From Erysipelothrix sp. (GTDB lineage Bacteria > Bacillota_I > Bacilli_A > Erysipelotrichales > Erysipelotrichaceae), in NCBI GenBank assembly GCA_012512595.1, contig JAAZDW010000007.1:1-47826 (forward strand): a stretch of DNA of 47,826 bases. The letters run 5' to 3'. Position 1 is the stretch's first letter. The number at the start of each line of letters is the position of its first letter. The notes beneath the pieces were generated by a model. The model saw nothing but the letters and a program-made list of their open reading frames with translations. It did no database searches and was not told the origin of the DNA. Positions 12,369 through 23,057 of this stretch are shown in pieces. Made by a program: the position numbers and the translations under genes.

Positions 12369-15239
12369 ATGAATATAATAGAAAACAAAATATTGTTATC
12401 TTTAAAAAAGGGTTTTTTGAATCAAAGCCATGAAGTAGATGAACATGTGCGCACTCGCTTTTTGACCAATGATACATTAAATAATGTTACCGTTTTAGAG
12501 ACAATTAAGAACGAATTAAATAGCTGTAAAAGCTTTATTTTTTCTGTTGCATTTATAACAGAGAGTGGATTAAATGAGTTAAAGAGTTTATTTGTGGATC
12601 TAGAAGAAAAAGGCGTTAAAGGAAGACTTATAACATCTCATTACCTATCTTTTAACAGCCCAAAAATATTTAGAGAACTGTTAAAGATCGGATGTTTAGA
12701 AGTCAGAATTACTGAGTTTGTGGGTTATCATCCAAAAGGCTACTTGTTTGAACATAATAATTATCAGACACTAATAATGGGTAGTTCTAATTTGACATCA
12801 CAAGCACTTAAGATAAACCATGAGTGGAATTTAAAGGTTTCTTCACTAGCTGAAGGCGAAGTTTTAAATTCAGTAGTAAACTCAATTGAAAACACTTGGA
12901 ATAATGCTAACGTGTTAACAGCTGAATGGATTGACAGGTATGAACTTAACTATAAAGAGCCAGTATTTTTTGTTGATAAGACAGCGACTACTAAAGAAGT
13001 CTTTTATGAAACGATAATACCTAACAAAATGCAAAGACAAGCACTTTTAGGAATAAAAGCTGTCAGGGAAAGTAATGAGAAACGTGGACTTGTTGTTTCA
13101 GCTACAGGTACCGGCAAAACTTATTTGGCTGCTTTTGATGTGCAAGCAGTTAAACCAAAAAAACTTTTGTTTCTTGCTCATCGCGAACAAATATTAAACC
13201 AAGCTATTATAAATTTTCAAAGAATCTTAAATAATAAAATGTCAGATTTTGGAATGTATAGTGGAAATAGAAGAGATAAAGACAAGCAATACCTTTTTGC
13301 GACAATTCAAACTTTAAGTAGAGATGAACATTTAAACAAATTTGAAGTAGATGAATTTGATTACATTATTATTGATGAGGTCCATAAAGCAGGAGCAGCG
13401 TCATACAATAAAGTAATAGATTACTTTAAACCAAAATTTTTGTTAGGGATGACGGCTACTCCTGAGAGAACAGATGATATAAATGTTTTTGAAATATTTC
13501 ATTTCAATACTGCTTATGAGATTCGTTTGCAGGAAGCAATAGAAGCTGAAATGTTAAGTAACTTTCACTACTATGGTGTCGTTGACTATGAACATGATGG
13601 AGAGCTTATTGACGAGACTACTAATCTTTCAAAACTAATTTCTAACGAAAGAATTGATCACCTTTTAAAAAAGATTAACTATTATGGTCATAATGGTGAC
13701 GTAGTTAAAGGGTTAATCTTCACTAGCCGTGTTGAAGAGGCAAAAGAGTTATCTGAAACACTTAATGATAGGGGATATAAAACTACTTGGCTGGCAGGAA
13801 TTCATAGCATTGATGAGCGTGAACAGGCTATTGAAAAGCTTGAAAATGAAGAATTGGAGTATATTATTACAGTTGACATCTTTAACGAGGGCATAGATAT
13901 ACCAGCTATAAATCAAGTTGTAATGATGCGTGAAACTCAATCTAGTATTATTTTTACTCAACAATTAGGCCGTGGTCTGCGAAAACACGCAGACAAAGAC
14001 TTTGTTACTATTATAGATTTTATAGGAAATTATAAAAATAATTATTTAATCCCTATCGCGCTATCAGGCGATGTAAGTTTAAATAAAGATGAAGTAAGAA
14101 GAAGAGTTATAGATGTAAATTATATTTCTGGTGTTTCGAGTGTCAATTTCGAGAGAATTGCCAAGGAAAGGATATTCCAATCTATTGGTGATACCAAACT
14201 TGATAGTCTAAAAAACCTTAGACAAGAGTATTTTCAATTAAAAAATCGCTTAGGTAGAATCCCGATGCTATATGACTTTTATCATGCTGAGTCAGTAGAT
14301 CCAGGTGTCATTGCGGAAAACAAAGGGAATTATTATAATTTCGTTTCTACTTACGATAAAGAGTTCAGTGAACAATATCCTTTAATAGAAAACAAAGAAT
14401 CGATAAAACTACTTAGACTTTTGACCAGAGAATTAATTAATTCAAAAAGAGCCCATGAAGTTTTATTGTTAGAATACCTTATCACTAACGATCACATTAC
14501 ATTTGAAGAGCTAGAAAAATTATACATCGAAGACAACATGTATTTTTCAAAAAATACGATTAAATCAGTTCTATCCATGTTTGATTTAAGCTTTTATCAT
14601 AAAGGGACTAAAAATACATACCAAAACTTTAAAATTGTGAAAGTAGATAAAGAATCTATATCACTTTCAACAGAGATGTTAGCAGCTTTAGAGGATGACA
14701 TTGTATTAAAATTTATCCAAGATATCATTAAAACAGTTAAAACAAAAAATAGTGACAAATATGAAAAAGACAAACGATTTAAGATAAGAGAAATTTATAC
14801 AAAAAAAGATACAAGTAGACTTCTTGAATGGCCAGCTGATAGATCGGCAACTTTATTTGGTTATGCGATTCAAGATAATCAGTGCCCAATTTATGTAACA
14901 TATAATAAACATGATGTAGAGAGTAGTGTTGATTACAAAGACGCCTTTATAAATACGAACACTTTTAGATGGTATACCAAAAGTAATCGTACTACAGAAT
15001 CCAAAAATGTAGTTAAAATTCTAAATGCACAAAAAAATGGATTAACCTTACACTTATTTGTTAAGAAAGATGACGCAACTTATACAAGCAATTTCTATTA
15101 TTTAGGGGAAATAACTCCTATAGAAAATCAACATAAACAAGAGGTTATGGATGATGGTAAACCAGTAGTAAGAATTGATATGAAAATGAAAACGCCTATT
15201 AGTGAAAGTTTTTATAATTATCTGGAAGATAATGTTTAG
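12369..15239 (+). CDS. DEAD/DEAH-type helicase with N-terminal PLD-like nuclease domain and DUF3427-like C-terminus
   Basis: PLD motif YHPKGYLF...MGSSNLTSQAL; Walker A SATGTGKTYL; DEVH box; motif VI QQLGRGLRKHADK; C-terminus GYAIQDNQCPIYVTYNK...SFYYLGEITP; 3 bp after NUDIX stop. Confidence 0.92.
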   Translation: MNIIENKILLSLKKGFLNQSHEVDEHVRTRFLTNDTLNNVTVLETIKNELNSCKSFIFSVAFITESGLNELKSLFVDLEEKGVKGRLITSHYLSFNSPKIFRELLKIGCLEVRITEFVGYHPKGYLFEHNNYQTLIMGSSNLTSQALKINHEWNLKVSSLAEGEVLNSVVNSIENTWNNANVLTAEWIDRYELNYKEPVFFVDKTATTKEVFYETIIPNKMQRQALLGIKAVRESNEKRGLVVSATGTGKTYLAAFDVQAVKPKKLLFLAHREQILNQAIINFQRILNNKMSDFGMYSGNRRDKDKQYLFATIQTLSRDEHLNKFEVDEFDYIIIDEVHKAGAASYNKVIDYFKPKFLLGMTATPERTDDINVFEIFHFNTAYEIRLQEAIEAEMLSNFHYYGVVDYEHDGELIDETTNLSKLISNERIDHLLKKINYYGHNGDVVKGLIFTSRVEEAKELSETLNDRGYKTTWLAGIHSIDEREQAIEKLENEELEYIITVDIFNEGIDIPAINQVVMMRETQSSIIFTQQLGRGLRKHADKDFVTIIDFIGNYKNNYLIPIALSGDVSLNKDEVRRRVIDVNYISGVSSVNFERIAKERIFQSIGDTKLDSLKNLRQEYFQLKNRLGRIPMLYDFYHAESVDPGVIAENKGNYYNFVSTYDKEFSEQYPLIENKESIKLLRLLTRELINSKRAHEVLLLEYLITNDHITFEELEKLYIEDNMYFSKNTIKSVLSMFDLSFYHKGTKNTYQNFKIVKVDKESISLSTEMLAALEDDIVLKFIQDIIKTVKTKNSDKYEKDKRFKIREIYTKKDTSRLLEWPADRSATLFGYAIQDNQCPIYVTYNKHDVESSVDYKDAFINTNTFRWYTKSNRTTESKNVVKILNAQKNGLTLHLFVKKDDATYTSNFYYLGEITPIENQHKQEVMDDGKPVVRIDMKMKTPISESFYNYLEDNV

Positions 15240-15366
15240 ATAATTAAAATATTAAATAATCAATATTTTCCTTTTCAATTACCAGGATTCACTTTACATG
15301 CTCATGCAAGATCCGATCTTTACATTTATTTGATAATATGGTCCAATGAATTAAAGGGGTGACTAT

Positions 15367-16849
15367 ATGAAAAAAGTGGGAAAATAAAGAATTTATAGCA
15401 AAAGATCTGGTATCTAAAATTAAAAATAAAGAAATTCTTGTGGCTCAGTATCAAAGAGGACAGGTGTGGAAAGCTGAAGCACAAAAAAATAATAGATTCA
15501 ATAAAAAAGGGTTTCCCCCTTTTGAACGATATTGCTTTATTATGATAAAGATGACCATAAATATAGACTTATAGATGGACTGCAAAGATGTATGACTATA
15601 ACTAAGTATATTAATAATTCGTCATTAATCTTTGACAAATACAATGATGTAGACACAGAGACTATAGAAAAAACAATTTCATTAGTACCTAATATGCAAG
15701 GTAATAAAGAGAAAATGAGAATAAGAATCTCAGATATCATTGAAAACTGGGTACTAGATTTTCATAATGATATAACAGATATTCAGGGAATGCAATACGT
15801 AGGTTGTGTTAGGAAAATTGTAGAAGTATTTCCAGCATATTTAGAATTTTCAGAAAAAATTGAGAGTTTATTAGAACCTATGTTAAAGCAATTCAAGACG
15901 ATTTGCGAGGAGTTATCCTCCGCTAATATTCCGGCTATAGTATATAAAGGAGAACAGAATGACTTGCCAGAAATATTCATTAGAAAAAATGCGCAAGGAA
16001 CAAAATTATCCAAGCAATCAATTTAACAGCTACTTGGCGTCATATTGACTACAGAATAGAGTCTGGAGAATTGGTAGACATCCATCAACACGTTAAAGAT
16101 TATTTTGGTAATCTATTTTCTGATGATTTTTCTTTCACATTAGAGGAAAAAGAACAAGACGAAAAAACACATTATCATACAGAGCTTCAAATGTGTTCTA
16201 TAATAGCTAACGCATTTATAGCTAAGCAAGCGAATTATTTTGAAGAATAAAGCTTAAAGGTTTATACTATAGACCTGCGGAGAAAAAACAAAAATTGGAA
16301 AGATCACGATAAAAACCTGTCTATGAATCTAATGAAAAGGTATCTTGTCGACATCCTTGATAATTCCTGGAGAGGTTCAGGAGATAGTAAGTTAAATGAT
16401 GCAATTACTGAACCAGATTATTATAGTAGAGAGATAGAAAGAGAACAATTATGTAAATCATTAGACAAATGGTATGTAGAATATCGAAATAGCACCAGGA
16501 ACTCATGAAAAATCATTTAACAAAATATGATAAACAGAATGTAGAGTATCGATTACCTATTAGCTCAATAGGTAACATGTGTTTACTTCCTAAGTTTGCA
16601 AACAGAAGGAAAGGTCACGGGACATTATATCAAGATAGATTTTACAAAGAAGCTATTGAAAAAGAAGGGTTAACTTTAAGAATTGTTGAGGATAAATATT
16701 CATTTACAACTGAGGAAAATTTATCTTGGATAGAATCAGACTATCCAGATTTTAATGATCTCAAATCTGAATACATTAAGTTTATAGATAAAATATTTGA
16801 AATAATCTCTAAAAAAGTGGTAGAGAATTTATACGGAAACCCTTATTAA
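15367..16849 (+). pseudogene. Frameshifted DUF262 (ParB-like/GmrS-type) + HNH-family protein
   Basis: Joined frames give MKK-WENKEFIAKDLVSKIKNKEILVAQYQRGQVWKAEAQKK-IIDSIKKGFPLLNDIALL-YYDKDDHKYRLIDGLQRCMTI...IFIRKNAQGTKLSK-INLTATWRHIDYRI...SWRGSGDSKL...LPISSIGNMCLLPKFANRRKGHGTLY; several frame changes. Confidence 0.85.
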
Positions 16850-17612: not shown

Positions 17613-17930
17613 AGTGGCTTCACTCCCTTAGGTAATATACAATTATACCCAAGATAAATCAAAACAAATGGCGTAGAATGTATTATCAATGTTATTTATA
17701 ATTATTTGTGATACTCTTTATATAATTAATTTACAAACGATTTTCACATACTTTAATATTTGTTTAAAGTTATAATGCTTTAATTAATTTAACTTAGGTA
17801 AAGTAATTGGGTTACTTTTAAGTATTATTTATGTCAGGAATACGACATATCTTTTTGTCTACATAATTGTATTTTATTTAATTGTGTAATTTATATATGT
17901 GTATAGATCATAATGAGGGAGGAAATAATT

Positions 17931-19400
17931 ATGAAACCAAAAACACAAAAGTTTACAATACTACATTCTAATGACATGCATGGTGATTTTTTGGCTGAAG
18001 TAAAAGAAGGTAGTGGTGAGCTAATAGGAGGCCTAGGGCTTCTTTCAGGATATATTAGTAAAGTAAGAGAAGAAGAAGAAAATGTTATCTATGCGATTGC
18101 GGGTGATATGGTTCAAGGGTCTTTAATTGACGCTGAATATAAAGGGGCATCGACAATTGAATTAATGAATTTTTTATCTCCAGATGTTGTGACACTTGGA
18201 AATCATGAACTAGACTATGGGCTTCCACATCTATTATTTTTAGAAAAAGTCGCTAACTTTCCGATTGTTAATGCAAATTTATATATGAAGAAATATGGAA
18301 AGCGGTTAATGACACCATATGTAATTTTAAATGTTGGTGGTTTTGAAGTTATGTTTATTGGTATTATTACGGAAACAACAATGGATTCAATCGCTCTTGA
18401 CCAATTAATAGAGACCTTTGTTTCAATTGAAGATGCAGCTGAAGAGATAGGCAAGATTTGTAATGCTTATCGAAATCATGACATAGATTTAACAGTTGCC
18501 CTAACCCATATTGGGTTTGAATCTGATTTAGAGCTTGCGAGTCTTCTAAAGCCCGAATGGGGTGTTGATCTTATTATTGGCGGACATACTCATACAGTTT
18601 TAGAACAACCGGCTAGAGTAAATGATATTTTAGTAGCTCAAGCTGGTGACGGTACCAATCAAATCGGAAGATTTGATATGATAGTTGATGAAAAAACAAA
18701 TGCTATTACTGACTGGACCTGGGAATTGGTTCCAATAAATAGTAATACGGCAACTATTGACACTGCTTTAGAAGAGTTTTTGGATGGTTTCCAAAGCAAG
18801 GTCGATGAAAAGTACAATCAAATTATTACTCGTTTTAGCGTTAAGTTAACCCACCCATCCCGTGAACAAGAAACAACTCTCGGGAATATGGTTACTGATG
18901 CTTTAGCTGGAAGTATTGAAACAGATGTCATCTTAATTGGATCAGGTGCCATCAGGTCTAAAGAATTAGGCCCAGTTGTAACTTTAGGGACCTTAAAAGC
19001 TTGTTTCCCATATGATGATAGTTTATCAAGATTTACAATAACCGGAAAACAATTAAAAGATATATTCACGCATATAATGCATCCAGATAACCGCGATGGT
19101 GAAGGCGAATTTTTCCAAGTAAATGATAAAGTCGAAGCCATTTACTCTGATAGTGAAACAAAACTATTATCATTGTCAGTTAATAATTTGCCTGTCGATG
19201 ACAGTCAGCACTATGCAATAACTTTACAAGGTTATCATGTAGTCAATTCAAAAGGCAATCTAGGAATAGCTTTAGATGATCTTAAGAGTATTGATAATGG
19301 AAAAGTTGTAACAACTTCAGCTTACCAAGTATTGGAAGAATGGTTAAGAGTTCACCCTAATATAAGAGAAGTAATCGATGGCAGATTAGTTTTTGTTTAA
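17931..19400 (+). CDS. Bifunctional metallophosphatase/5'-nucleotidase (UshA/YfkN-like)
   Basis: ILHSNDMHGDF, GDMVQGS, LGNHELDYG, GGHTHT; start moved from 17913 to 17931 because GAGGGAGGAAATAATT-ATG is the SD and start, matching the 489-aa paralog. Confidence 0.93.
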   Translation: MKPKTQKFTILHSNDMHGDFLAEVKEGSGELIGGLGLLSGYISKVREEEENVIYAIAGDMVQGSLIDAEYKGASTIELMNFLSPDVVTLGNHELDYGLPHLLFLEKVANFPIVNANLYMKKYGKRLMTPYVILNVGGFEVMFIGIITETTMDSIALDQLIETFVSIEDAAEEIGKICNAYRNHDIDLTVALTHIGFESDLELASLLKPEWGVDLIIGGHTHTVLEQPARVNDILVAQAGDGTNQIGRFDMIVDEKTNAITDWTWELVPINSNTATIDTALEEFLDGFQSKVDEKYNQIITRFSVKLTHPSREQETTLGNMVTDALAGSIETDVILIGSGAIRSKELGPVVTLGTLKACFPYDDSLSRFTITGKQLKDIFTHIMHPDNRDGEGEFFQVNDKVEAIYSDSETKLLSLSVNNLPVDDSQHYAITLQGYHVVNSKGNLGIALDDLKSIDNGKVVTTSAYQVLEEWLRVHPNIREVIDGRLVFV

Positions 19401-19465: not shown

Positions 19466-19566
19466 ATTTTTAATTGACACCTATATATTCTAAGTCAATT
19501 TAAAAGGTCTAGTATCAAAGTAATCGCTATGGTATTATTGTAATATTGTAAAGGGGATTAGATATA

Positions 19567-20847
19567 GTGAATATAGAAGATAATAAGGCAACAAAGGCCT
19601 TAATTCAAATCGAAAATGATTTTAGGGGAAATGAATTTGTAAATGTAACAAAAGCTGAAACCGCACAAGAAGATATATTTAGAGTTCAATATAATCTTGA
19701 TGGTATATATCTTACAAGTGAAGATATAGTTGATAAAATGGTTTATCACCAACTTGAAGTGACAATACCAAAAGACTATCCAAATACAGAACCTAAGTTA
19801 AAGATGTTAACACCAATTTTTCACCCAAATATTGAAAATGGTGTGATATCACTAACTGGAATTTGGGATAAAAATCAATCACTTAGCGAACTTATTATAA
19901 CTATAGGAAAAATGATTCAATATCAATTATATGATCTTGAAAATGTTGCATCAGAAAAGGCCCTAAAGTGGCTAAATGAAAACAAGATTTTTTTGCCTAT
20001 TGGAAAAACTGAAATAACAATAAACTCAAAGAATAAAAAATCAAGCACTAACTATGACCAAGCTTTAAGTGAGCTTAAAGCGATGGCAGGTGATAGTACA
20101 ACTAGCAAAAACAACGTAACAGCGAGTATCAATATTGGACATGAACTTAATCATAATTATTTGTTAAGTGTAATTGGATTGGCCTTCTTAAGTGTTGTCT
20201 TAATCTATATACTTAGGTTGCCAAGTCAGTTTTTCATTGACACTATCAGAACTTTTGAGGATTGGGTTTTTTCTTTCACCCATTCACTTATTCTTTTGGG
20301 TTTTATATCACCACTGTTTAGAATGGTCTATGGAATGCCGATAGTTGTTATACTTAGCCTTATCTTTGGATATAGAAATATGTTTGTCATTAATAAAAAA
20401 GCGAAAACAGTAAAAGATATATTGAGTTTACTCTTAATTTCCGTACTATCAGCCTTTGTCATAATATTTATTATTAACTTCTTAGATTTTTTAATAATTA
20501 ATTATACACCAATCACTGGACCAACAAGATATGGTATTTATGCATTCATCTATTTTGCCCTAACTGACTCGGCGATAGGAATGGCGGTTGGAGTTACTTT
20601 GGCAGCGATTAAAAGTGGTAAAAAGGATTTAATTAAAGGGTTTGTGGGCGGAGCTGTTGGTGGCTTTATTGGATCAATTCTAAGATCAATATTCTTTGAA
20701 TTTCCAATCCTTAACAGTCTAGCAAGCATTACTATTTTTGGAAATTTAACTTTAGGTTATATTATTGGAACCATGATATTTTCAGTATCAATTATTTTAG
20801 CAATTGATGTAGTTTTAAATTATAATAAACCAAAAAAATTAGTTTAA
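19567..20847 (+). CDS. E2 ubiquitin-conjugating-like (UBC fold, Cys-to-Ser) protein with C-terminal multi-TM domain
   Basis: MVYHQLEVTIPKDYPNTEPKLKMLTPIFHPNIENGVISLTGIWDKNQSLSELIITIGKMI...ASEKALKWLNEN matches the UBC pattern (DYP..PK...TPI(Y/F)HPN...ICL...W...L); about six hydrophobic TM segments from ~residue 196. Confidence 0.8.
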   Translation: MNIEDNKATKALIQIENDFRGNEFVNVTKAETAQEDIFRVQYNLDGIYLTSEDIVDKMVYHQLEVTIPKDYPNTEPKLKMLTPIFHPNIENGVISLTGIWDKNQSLSELIITIGKMIQYQLYDLENVASEKALKWLNENKIFLPIGKTEITINSKNKKSSTNYDQALSELKAMAGDSTTSKNNVTASINIGHELNHNYLLSVIGLAFLSVVLIYILRLPSQFFIDTIRTFEDWVFSFTHSLILLGFISPLFRMVYGMPIVVILSLIFGYRNMFVINKKAKTVKDILSLLLISVLSAFVIIFIINFLDFLIINYTPITGPTRYGIYAFIYFALTDSAIGMAVGVTLAAIKSGKKDLIKGFVGGAVGGFIGSILRSIFFEFPILNSLASITIFGNLTLGYIIGTMIFSVSIILAIDVVLNYNKPKKLV

Positions 20848-20897: not shown

Positions 20898-20938
20898 TAA
20901 AACCTATACCAAGGATATTTGAATGGTATAGGTTTTTC
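20898..20938 (+). terminator. Intrinsic terminator
   Basis: AAAACCTATACC...GGTATAGGTTTTT. Confidence 0.82.
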
Positions 20939-21587: not shown

Positions 21588-23057
21588 ATGGAAAATGTAA
21601 GACGTAAATTTACTATTCTCCATTCAAATGACATGCATGGAGATTTTTTAGCCGAAGTAAAGGAGGGTAGTGGTCATTTGATTGGTGGCTTAGCGCTTTT
21701 GTCAGGCTATCTTAATCAAGTAAGAGCAGAAGAAGAAAATGTAATTTTTGCGATTGCGGGAGATATGGTTCAAGGGTCTTTAATTGATTCTGAGTATAAG
21801 GGTGTTTCAACTATAGAAATCATGAATTACTTATCACCAGATGTTGTGACCTTAGGTAATCATGAATTAGACTATGGGCTGCCTCATCTTTTGTTTTTAG
21901 AAAAGGTCGCAAACTTTCCAATTGTTAATGCTAATCTTTATATTAAACAATATGGAAAAAGATTAATGACACCATATTTGATTATCAATATGGATGGCTT
22001 TGATATTCTTTTTATTGGCATTATTACTGAAAAGGTAATGGATTCCTTAGCCCTTGATCAGCTAATTGGAACCTTTGTTTCAATTGAAGCTGCAGCTGCC
22101 GAAGTTGGGAAAATTTGTAATGCTTATAAAGATGATGATATTGATCTAACAATTGCTTTAACTCATATAGGCTTTGAATCTGATCTTGAGTTAGCTAAAC
22201 TTTTAAAGCCTGAATGGGGCGTCGATATGATTTTAGGTGGTCATTCCCATACAGTCTTAGAACAGCCAGCGGTGGTTAATGACATTTTGATTGCCCAAGC
22301 TGGGGTTGGAACTGATCAAATTGGTCGTTTTGACATTGTAGTTGATGATGATACTAATTCAATTGTTGAATGGAAGTGGCAACTAGTGCCGATAACAACA
22401 AAAACAGCTCAAGCCGATTTAGAATTAGAAACCTTTATTAACCAATATCGCGACAAAGTAAATCATAAGTATAATGGAATTATCACGCGTTTTTCTAGAA
22501 AATTGACTCACCCCAAACGTGAAGTAGAAACAACTTTAGGTAATTTAATCGCCGATGCCATGATTGACCACGCTAATACTGATGTTCTTTTACTAGGGTC
22601 CGGTGGTATTAGAGGTACAGCCTTAGGTCCGGTTGTAACCCTAGGGGATTTAAAGGCTTGTTATCCATATGATGATAGCTTAACTAGATTTACAATCACC
22701 GGCAAACAATTAAAAGCTATTTTTAATCATATAATGCGGAGTGAAAACCGTAATGGAGAAGGAGAGTGCTTCCAAGTAAATCATGGAGTAAAAGCTGTTT
22801 ATTCAGAAACAGAAGCCCAACTTTTATCTCTTTCAATTGATAATAAACCGGTCGACTTAGACCAAACTTATACGATAACCCTCCAAAATTACCATATCGC
22901 AAACTCACTAGCAAATCTTAACATTTCTAATGAGGATTTAAACGCAATAAAAAGTGGAAAGATAGTCTCTACTTCAGGTTATCAAGTCATCGAAGAGTGG
23001 CTAAGAGATCACCCAAATGAAAAAAGAGAAATTGAAGGTCGATTAGTATACGTATAA
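21588..23057 (+). CDS. Bifunctional metallophosphatase/5'-nucleotidase (paralog of 17931-19400)
   Basis: Same motifs and near-collinear sequence; SD AAAAGGAGGAAATC-ATG. Confidence 0.95.
   Translation: MENVRRKFTILHSNDMHGDFLAEVKEGSGHLIGGLALLSGYLNQVRAEEENVIFAIAGDMVQGSLIDSEYKGVSTIEIMNYLSPDVVTLGNHELDYGLPHLLFLEKVANFPIVNANLYIKQYGKRLMTPYLIINMDGFDILFIGIITEKVMDSLALDQLIGTFVSIEAAAAEVGKICNAYKDDDIDLTIALTHIGFESDLELAKLLKPEWGVDMILGGHSHTVLEQPAVVNDILIAQAGVGTDQIGRFDIVVDDDTNSIVEWKWQLVPITTKTAQADLELETFINQYRDKVNHKYNGIITRFSRKLTHPKREVETTLGNLIADAMIDHANTDVLLLGSGGIRGTALGPVVTLGDLKACYPYDDSLTRFTITGKQLKAIFNHIMRSENRNGEGECFQVNHGVKAVYSETEAQLLSLSIDNKPVDLDQTYTITLQNYHIANSLANLNISNEDLNAIKSGKIVSTSGYQVIEEWLRDHPNEKREIEGRLVYV

What the first reader, a model, noticed from the sequence alone, without database searches (positions are those of the whole stretch)
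19567..20847. Bacterial membrane-tethered E2 ubiquitin-conjugating-like protein with catalytic Cys replaced by Ser
Seen directly: residues ~6-138 read YHQLEVTIPKDYPNTEPKLKMLTPIFHPNIENGVISLTGIWDKNQSLSELIITIGKMIQYQ...ASEKALKWLNEN. Canonical UBC domains read FxLxIxFPxDYPFxPPKVxFxTxIYHPNIxxxGxICLDIL...WSPALxIxxVLLSI. The DYP, PK, TPI-F-HPN and I-x-L motifs fall in order and spacing; H86-P87-N88 is intact, and the residue aligned with the active-site Cys is Ser95 (TCA, 19849-19851). UEV-type E2 variants (established) also lose this Cys. Inference: a non-catalytic or Ser-based E2-like domain fused to a polytopic membrane region, in a gene terminated on its own with no E1, Ub-like, JAB or CBASS/Bil partner in the window. 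This is the best candidate here for an undescribed system.
Basis: partly seen in the sequence, partly recalled or inferred. Interest (0 to 1): 0.87.

Follow-up and report, generated by a model that had tools for sequence, protein, structure and literature searches.

The report
Membrane-anchored, Cys-less bacterial E2-like protein
A small-genome, low-GC bacterium carries a stand-alone gene for a ubiquitin-conjugating-enzyme (E2) domain that has lost its catalytic cysteine and is fused to a membrane anchor, most likely a repurposed binding module left over from a bacterial ubiquitin-like system of which no other part was found in the part of the genome available.

Summary
The ORF at 19567-20847 (426 aa) has an N-terminal UBC/E2 domain: Pfam UQ_con 33.1 bits against a cut-off of 27. 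An AlphaFold model built on 46 relatives has pLDDT 91.8, and its best PDB matches are all E2s. HPN is intact at 86-88, and the catalytic position is Ser95 (TCA). Among 46 relatives from Planctomycetota, Chloroflexota, Cyanobacteria and others, 45 have Cys there and one has Trp.

Those relatives sit in operons with E1, a YukD-type Ubl, JAB, Prok-RING_1 and a six-TM/FHA membrane protein. The window's membrane half matches that TM module (E 8.8e-8; best of 2000 shuffles 7.9 bits), though the signal lies in one glycine-zipper hairpin.

So the gene looks like a fusion of two neighbours of a known bacterial Ubl-conjugation system, with catalysis and FHA lost. No YukD Ubl, JAB, RING or FHA was found in the 66%-complete genome; its only ThiF is TcdA-like. 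No relative was found in about 1000 related genomes.

Best reading: a UEV-like, non-catalytic, cytoplasm-facing binding platform; a new variant of a known kind.

The parts
19567..20847 (+). whole gene, 426 aa, E2-like domain plus membrane module
   Evidence: intact ORF; single copy in the held genome; codon usage and GC typical of the window (z -0.25, GC 0.302)
19550..19556 (+). AAAGGGG ribosome-binding site upstream of the GTG start
   Evidence: seen directly
19567..20016 (+). UBC/E2-like domain, residues 1-150
   Evidence: Pfam PF00179 33.1 bits over cut-off 27; AF2 pLDDT 91.8; Foldseek best PDB hits all E2s, probability 1.00, TM about 0.6
19822..19830 (+). H86-P87-N88 motif, invariant in the family
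   Evidence: invariant in 47 of 47 rows of A2
19849..19851 (+). Ser95 (TCA) at the catalytic cysteine position
   Evidence: 45 of 46 relatives have Cys, one (L084) has Trp
20017..20154 (+). linker, residues 151-196
   Evidence: low confidence in the single-sequence model, no hydrophobic segment
20155..20814 (+). membrane module, about six TM segments (about 197-217, 238-270, 283-311, 322-348, 354-378, 388-416), N-in/C-in
   Evidence: hydropathy and positive-inside count: K/R 3, 3, 3 in the cytoplasmic loops and tail against 1, 1, 0 in the outer loops (segment limits set by hand); profile match to TM-FHA proteins E=8.8e-8
20578..20691 (+). glycine-zipper hairpin GMAVGVTLAAIKSGKKDLIKGFVGGAVGGFIGSIL (about residues 338-375), where the TM-FHA similarity is concentrated
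   Evidence: masking 16 residues drops the score from 30.1 to 5.0 bits
19426..19470 (+). hairpin TCCCCTTAA...TTAAGGGGA plus T run, terminator-like, ends the upstream nucleotidase gene
   Evidence: seen directly; loop too long for the scanner
20900..20937 (+). hairpin AAACCTATACC...GGTATAGGTTT plus T run downstream, terminator-like
   Evidence: seen directly; loop too long for the scanner

Best explanation
A membrane-tethered pseudo-E2 (UEV-like). Shown: a UBC fold at the N-terminus with HPN kept and the catalytic Cys replaced by Ser, followed by a roughly six-TM region. Well supported: the E2 domain descends from active E2s of bacterial YukD-Ubl/E1/E2/JAB/RING operons. Probable: the membrane half descends from the TM module of the FHA membrane protein of those operons, so the gene fuses two former neighbours and has lost both catalysis and FHA. 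Inferred: the domain faces the cytoplasm and works as a non-covalent binding platform. It would hold a Ubl-like, RING-like or other client protein at the membrane, as UEV domains hold ubiquitin, rather than transferring a modifier through a thioester.
For: UBC fold. Nearest relatives are bacterial E2s with a catalytic Cys. Their operons carry Ubl (YukD PF08817, E=2.8e-15), E1, JAB, Prok-RING_1 and TM-FHA. TM module match: 30.1 bits against 7.9 for the best of 2000 shuffles and 5.4 for the best of the other 67 membrane ORFs tested. Topology fits: three basic cytoplasmic stretches and a cytoplasmic C-terminus, where the relatives carry FHA. Loss of catalysis: Ser in place of a Cys kept by 45 of 46 relatives; long branch of 3.59 against a median of 0.27; no YukD, Prok-JAB, Prok-RING_1 or FHA in the genome, and its single ThiF (254 aa) scores best against TcdA and has counterparts of like size in both sister species. 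Parallels: L113, an Asgard UEV-Vps23 protein, has Ser at the same site, and UEV domains of Asgard Vps23 homologues bind ubiquitin without Cys (PMC9192718). L018 has RING plus a divergent E2-like domain with Ser in an operon that also has a Cys-bearing E2. Adapted codon usage and an intact reading frame argue against a fresh pseudogene.
Against: The genome is only 66% complete, so a Ubl or E1 elsewhere is not excluded. The TM-module similarity rests mainly on one glycine-zipper hairpin. No orthologue was found, so purifying selection could not be tested. No binding partner is known. Retained HPN, often lost in UEVs (own knowledge), leaves a Ser oxyester enzyme formally possible.
Confidence: 0.6

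Rival explanations
1. Ser95 is a working nucleophile: a membrane E2 that carries a Ubl as an oxyester, charged by an E1 and a Ubl in the missing third of the genome.
For: HPN (oxyanion-hole motif) and Trp100 are intact; high-confidence E2 fold; genome 66% complete.
Against: 45 of 46 relatives use Cys; no YukD, JAB, RING or FHA in the genome or in two sister species at 84% and 94% completeness; Ser at this site occurs in UEV-type proteins; long branch.
Confidence: 0.08
2. Decaying relic: an acquired E2/TM fusion on its way to loss, with no present function.
For: Single genome, absent from both sister species and from 273 family genomes; no partners; long branch.
Against: 426-aa frame intact; codon usage and GC fully adapted, which implies long residence; eight positions invariant in the family, HPN among them, all kept; high-confidence fold.
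Confidence: 0.17
3. E2-fold membrane receptor or scaffold that has left ubiquitin-like biology entirely (an RWD-like adaptor), for example for envelope or defence signalling.
For: No Ubl system in the held genome; a helicase-nuclease with DUF3427 and a broken GmrSD-type gene lie about 3-7 kb upstream; weak RWD hit below the cut-off.
Against: UQ_con clearly beats RWD; the neighbours are separated by independent genes; PADLOC E2 hit only E=0.05.
Confidence: 0.15

Closest known systems
Bacterial E2s of YukD-Ubl/E1/E2/JAB/Prok-RING_1/TM-FHA operons (Planctomycetota, Chloroflexota, Cyanobacteria); prokaryotic RING-E2 systems of Burroughs, Iyer and Aravind 2011 (not held; own knowledge, cited in PMC7159879)
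   Same: Same E2 subfamily by sequence and fold; TM half resembles the operon's TM-FHA protein
   Different: Ser instead of Cys; E2 and TM fused in one protein; no FHA; no E1, Ubl, JAB or RING nearby or found in the genome
UEV domains (TSG101/Vps23, Mms2), including Asgard Vps23
   Same: E2 fold without catalytic Cys; an Asgard member (L113) also has Ser there
   Different: HPN kept; no PF05743 match; no ESCRT partners; polytopic membrane anchor; ubiquitin binding untested
Inactive E2/RWD-like domains of poly-Ubl operons, type 6e (Iyer 2006, PMC1779556)
   Same: Bacterial E2 fold lacking Cys
   Different: Those sit beside or fused to poly-Ubl and JAB-E1; this one is membrane-fused and alone
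L084 Desulfobacteria protein (1031 aa)
   Same: Cys-less E2 of the same subfamily (Trp), same protein carries one strong hydrophobic segment, no partner genes within the 8 kb held
   Different: Has a cysteine-rich region, TPR repeats and an Lcl_C domain
Cap2 (CBASS) and BilB E2s
   Same: Bacterial E2 fold
   Different: Not the same subfamily; Cap2 is an E2-E1 fusion in a cyclase operon; PADLOC E2 model only E=0.05

Membership tests
E2/UBC superfamily (PF00179) | profile match over the curated cut-off | tested here: met
   33.1 bits against 27
E2/UBC superfamily (PF00179) | UBC fold: N-terminal helix, beta-meander, C-terminal helices | tested here: met
   AF2 pLDDT 91.8; Foldseek to E2s, probability 1.00, TM about 0.6
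E2/UBC superfamily (PF00179) | HPN motif | tested here: met
   H86-P87-N88
Active E2 conjugating enzyme | catalytic cysteine | tested here: not met
   Ser95, TCA
Active E2 conjugating enzyme | E1-dependent charging with a Ubl | not testable with these tools
   biochemical
UEV (functional class) | E2 fold without catalytic Cys | tested here: met
UEV (functional class) | binds ubiquitin or Ubl non-covalently | not testable with these tools
   no partner known
UEV (Pfam PF05743, TSG101 type) | profile match | tested here: not met
   not among hits up to E=10
YukD-Ubl/E1/E2/JAB/RING/FHA operon system | E2 of the same subfamily | tested here: met
   blastp to 4e-24; own-profile match E=7e-48 (the window is itself a row)
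YukD-Ubl/E1/E2/JAB/RING/FHA operon system | linked E1, Ubl, JAB or RING genes | tested here: not met
   none in the window
YukD-Ubl/E1/E2/JAB/RING/FHA operon system | dedicated E1 and Ubl anywhere in the genome | tested here: inconclusive
   none found, but the genome is 66% complete
TM-FHA membrane protein of that operon | six-TM glycine-zipper module | tested here: inconclusive
   E=8.8e-8, but carried mainly by one hairpin
TM-FHA membrane protein of that operon | C-terminal FHA domain | tested here: not met
   protein ends 10 residues after the last TM; no FHA hit
CBASS type II (Cap2) | E2-E1 fusion with cyclase, Cap3 and effector | tested here: not met
   no E1 domain in the protein and no E1 or JAB hit in the window
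Bil system | BilA-D operon; CEHH motif in the E2 | tested here: not met
   no E1, Ubl or JAB profile hit in the window; Ser at the Cys site

The most novel reading that the evidence does not exclude
A stand-alone, E1-free bacterial membrane receptor built from a Ubl-conjugating enzyme: the E2 and TM parts of a bacterial ubiquitin-like operon were fused, lost catalysis, and now act as a binding platform in a lineage without any Ubl. That would be a bacterial counterpart of the E2-to-UEV transition at a membrane.
Probability: 0.35. Interest if true: 0.7.

Novelty: new variant of a known kind. Interest (0 to 1): 0.52.

Why it matters
It suggests that bacterial ubiquitin-like operons can shed catalysis and leave a membrane-bound E2-fold adaptor behind, a parallel to eukaryotic UEVs. 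It points to a concrete partner for the E2 in the parent systems: the fusion hints that E2 and the six-TM FHA protein work in one membrane complex there, which can be tested in planctomycetes.

Tried and rejected
Single-sequence AF2 of the full protein: pLDDT 42, not used. Peptide-pattern scans with the window protein in genome contigs and viral contigs found no relative. tblastn in phages and plasmids: none. PF00179 in 295 order, 395 class and 392 phylum genomes: only the window over the cut-off; L003 is an E2-E1 (Cap2-like) protein beside a nucleotidyltransferase. CBASS and Bil membership rejected. Eukaryotic contamination rejected: codon usage normal, and a neighbour 4 kb away is 69% identical to a gene of a sister species. 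Recent HGT or pseudogene not supported by composition. Tree position within the planctomycete-type clade is unsure because of the long branch.

Full report
Observation. The ORF at 19567-20847 (+) is intact, 426 aa, starts with GTG behind an AAAGGGG site, and is single copy in the held genome. Pfam UQ_con scores 33.1 bits over a cut-off of 27, RWD is below its cut-off, and no UEV (PF05743) hit appears. phmmer finds PDB E2s at 4e-5. The DYP/P/T/HPN pattern occurs once in the window and in none of 100 shuffles.

Relatives. The window's best blastp matches are bacterial E2s of Planctomycetota, Chloroflexota, Armatimonadota and a Bacillota MAG (4e-24 and down). In an alignment of the window and 46 of these, Y71, P72, P76, T82, H86, P87, N88 and W135 are invariant. 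Position 95 is Cys in 45, Trp in L084 and Ser in the window. The profile of this set matches PDB E2s at 2e-15. AF2 with this alignment gives pLDDT 91.8 and pTM 0.87, and Foldseek's best PDB hits are all E2s with probability 1.00 and TM about 0.6.

Parent system. In the 46 relatives' loci, many of them cut short, E1 occurs in 30, JAB in 31, a small Ubl in 27, a RING-like gene in 22 and the TM module in 14. Pfam names the Ubl YukD (2.8e-15), the E1 ThiF, the peptidase JAB, the zinc protein Prok-RING_1 and the membrane protein FHA. This matches the prokaryotic RING/E2/YukD-like systems of Burroughs et al. 2011 (own knowledge; the paper is not held but is cited in PMC7159879).

Membrane half. From the operon context I expected the window's TM half to resemble the six-TM module of the TM-FHA proteins. 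A profile of that module, built without the window, scores the window at 30.1 bits (E 8.8e-8). The best of 2000 composition- or hydropathy-preserving shuffles scores 7.9, and the best of 67 other membrane ORFs (two related genomes and the window) scores 5.4. Caveat: masking 16 residues of the glycine-zipper hairpin lowers the score to 5.0 bits, so the similarity is concentrated there and convergence is not excluded. Topology agrees: K/R counts of 3, 3 and 3 in the predicted cytoplasmic loops and tail, against 1, 1 and 0 outside. The segment limits were set by hand, and a hydropathy scan alone counts seven segments.

Absence of partners. No E1, Ubl, JAB or RING profile hits the window. In the held genome (66% complete) and two sister species (84% and 94%) there is no FHA, YukD, Prok-JAB or Prok-RING_1. 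The only ThiF is a 254-aa protein whose best NCBIfam model is TcdA, below that model's cut-off, and both sister species have a ThiF of like size. The gene itself is missing from both sisters and from the 273 held family genomes. Codon usage and GC are typical of the window, so it is not a fresh arrival. An adenosine deaminase 4 kb away is 69% identical to one in a sister species, which argues that the contig belongs to this lineage.

Mechanism. Shown: fold, HPN, Ser95, membrane region, isolation. Well supported: descent of the E2 half from Cys-bearing operon E2s. Probable: descent of the TM half from the neighbouring TM-FHA gene. Inferred: a non-catalytic, cytoplasm-facing binding platform. 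Parallels for Ser at this site are an Asgard UEV-Vps23 protein (L113: UEV 8.6e-7, Vps23 core 3e-5) and a divergent RING plus E2-like protein in an operon with a Cys-bearing E2 (L018, weak similarity). UEV domains of other Asgard Vps23 homologues bind ubiquitin without a catalytic Cys (PMC9192718). The long branch (3.59 against a median of 0.27) fits relaxed or altered constraint, but also makes the exact placement unsure.

Known against new. Inactive bacterial E2/RWD-like domains were described in poly-Ubl operons in 2006 (PMC1779556), so a Cys-less bacterial E2 as such is not new. New here is the fusion to a polytopic membrane module and the isolation from any Ubl system. I rate it a new variant of a known kind.

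Limits.

Noticed in passing
17913-19400 and 21588-23057: Two UshA-like 5'-nucleotidase paralogues, 72% identical, flank the E2-TM gene and an OsmC-like gene; sister species have only distant (about 25%) matches.
   Followed up: partly
12369-16849: A DEAD/ResIII helicase with PLD and DUF3427 domains followed by what looks like a broken GmrSD-type gene (N-terminal fragment 15532-16026, further pieces at 16323 and 16505); possibly a decayed defence island.
   Followed up: partly
L084:440-3535: Desulfobacteria 1031-aa protein: Cys-less E2 (Trp at the site), cysteine-rich region, a hydrophobic segment, TPRs and an Lcl_C domain; no Ubl partners in the 8 kb held.
   Followed up: partly
L018:1097-3136: RING-like plus divergent E2-like domain (HPR, Ser at the Cys site) in one protein, beside E1, JAB and a Cys-bearing E2 in Candidatus Zipacnadia.
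   Followed up: partly
L113:1422-2234: Wukongarchaeum UEV-Vps23 protein with Ser at the E2 cysteine position.
   Followed up: partly
L035:1287-1793 and L098:3226-3726: Eukaryote-like E2 domains in two Pseudomonas species with Gly at the Cys position (SIGLDIL, EIGLDIL).
   Followed up: no
L046:962-1858: Bacillota MAG with a Cys-bearing E2 of this subfamily fused to a Cys/His-rich C-terminal region, next to what looks like a Lon-type protease end.
   Followed up: no
L003:198-2985: Relative G469 has an E2-E1 fusion next to a nucleotidyltransferase, CBASS type II-like.
   Followed up: no
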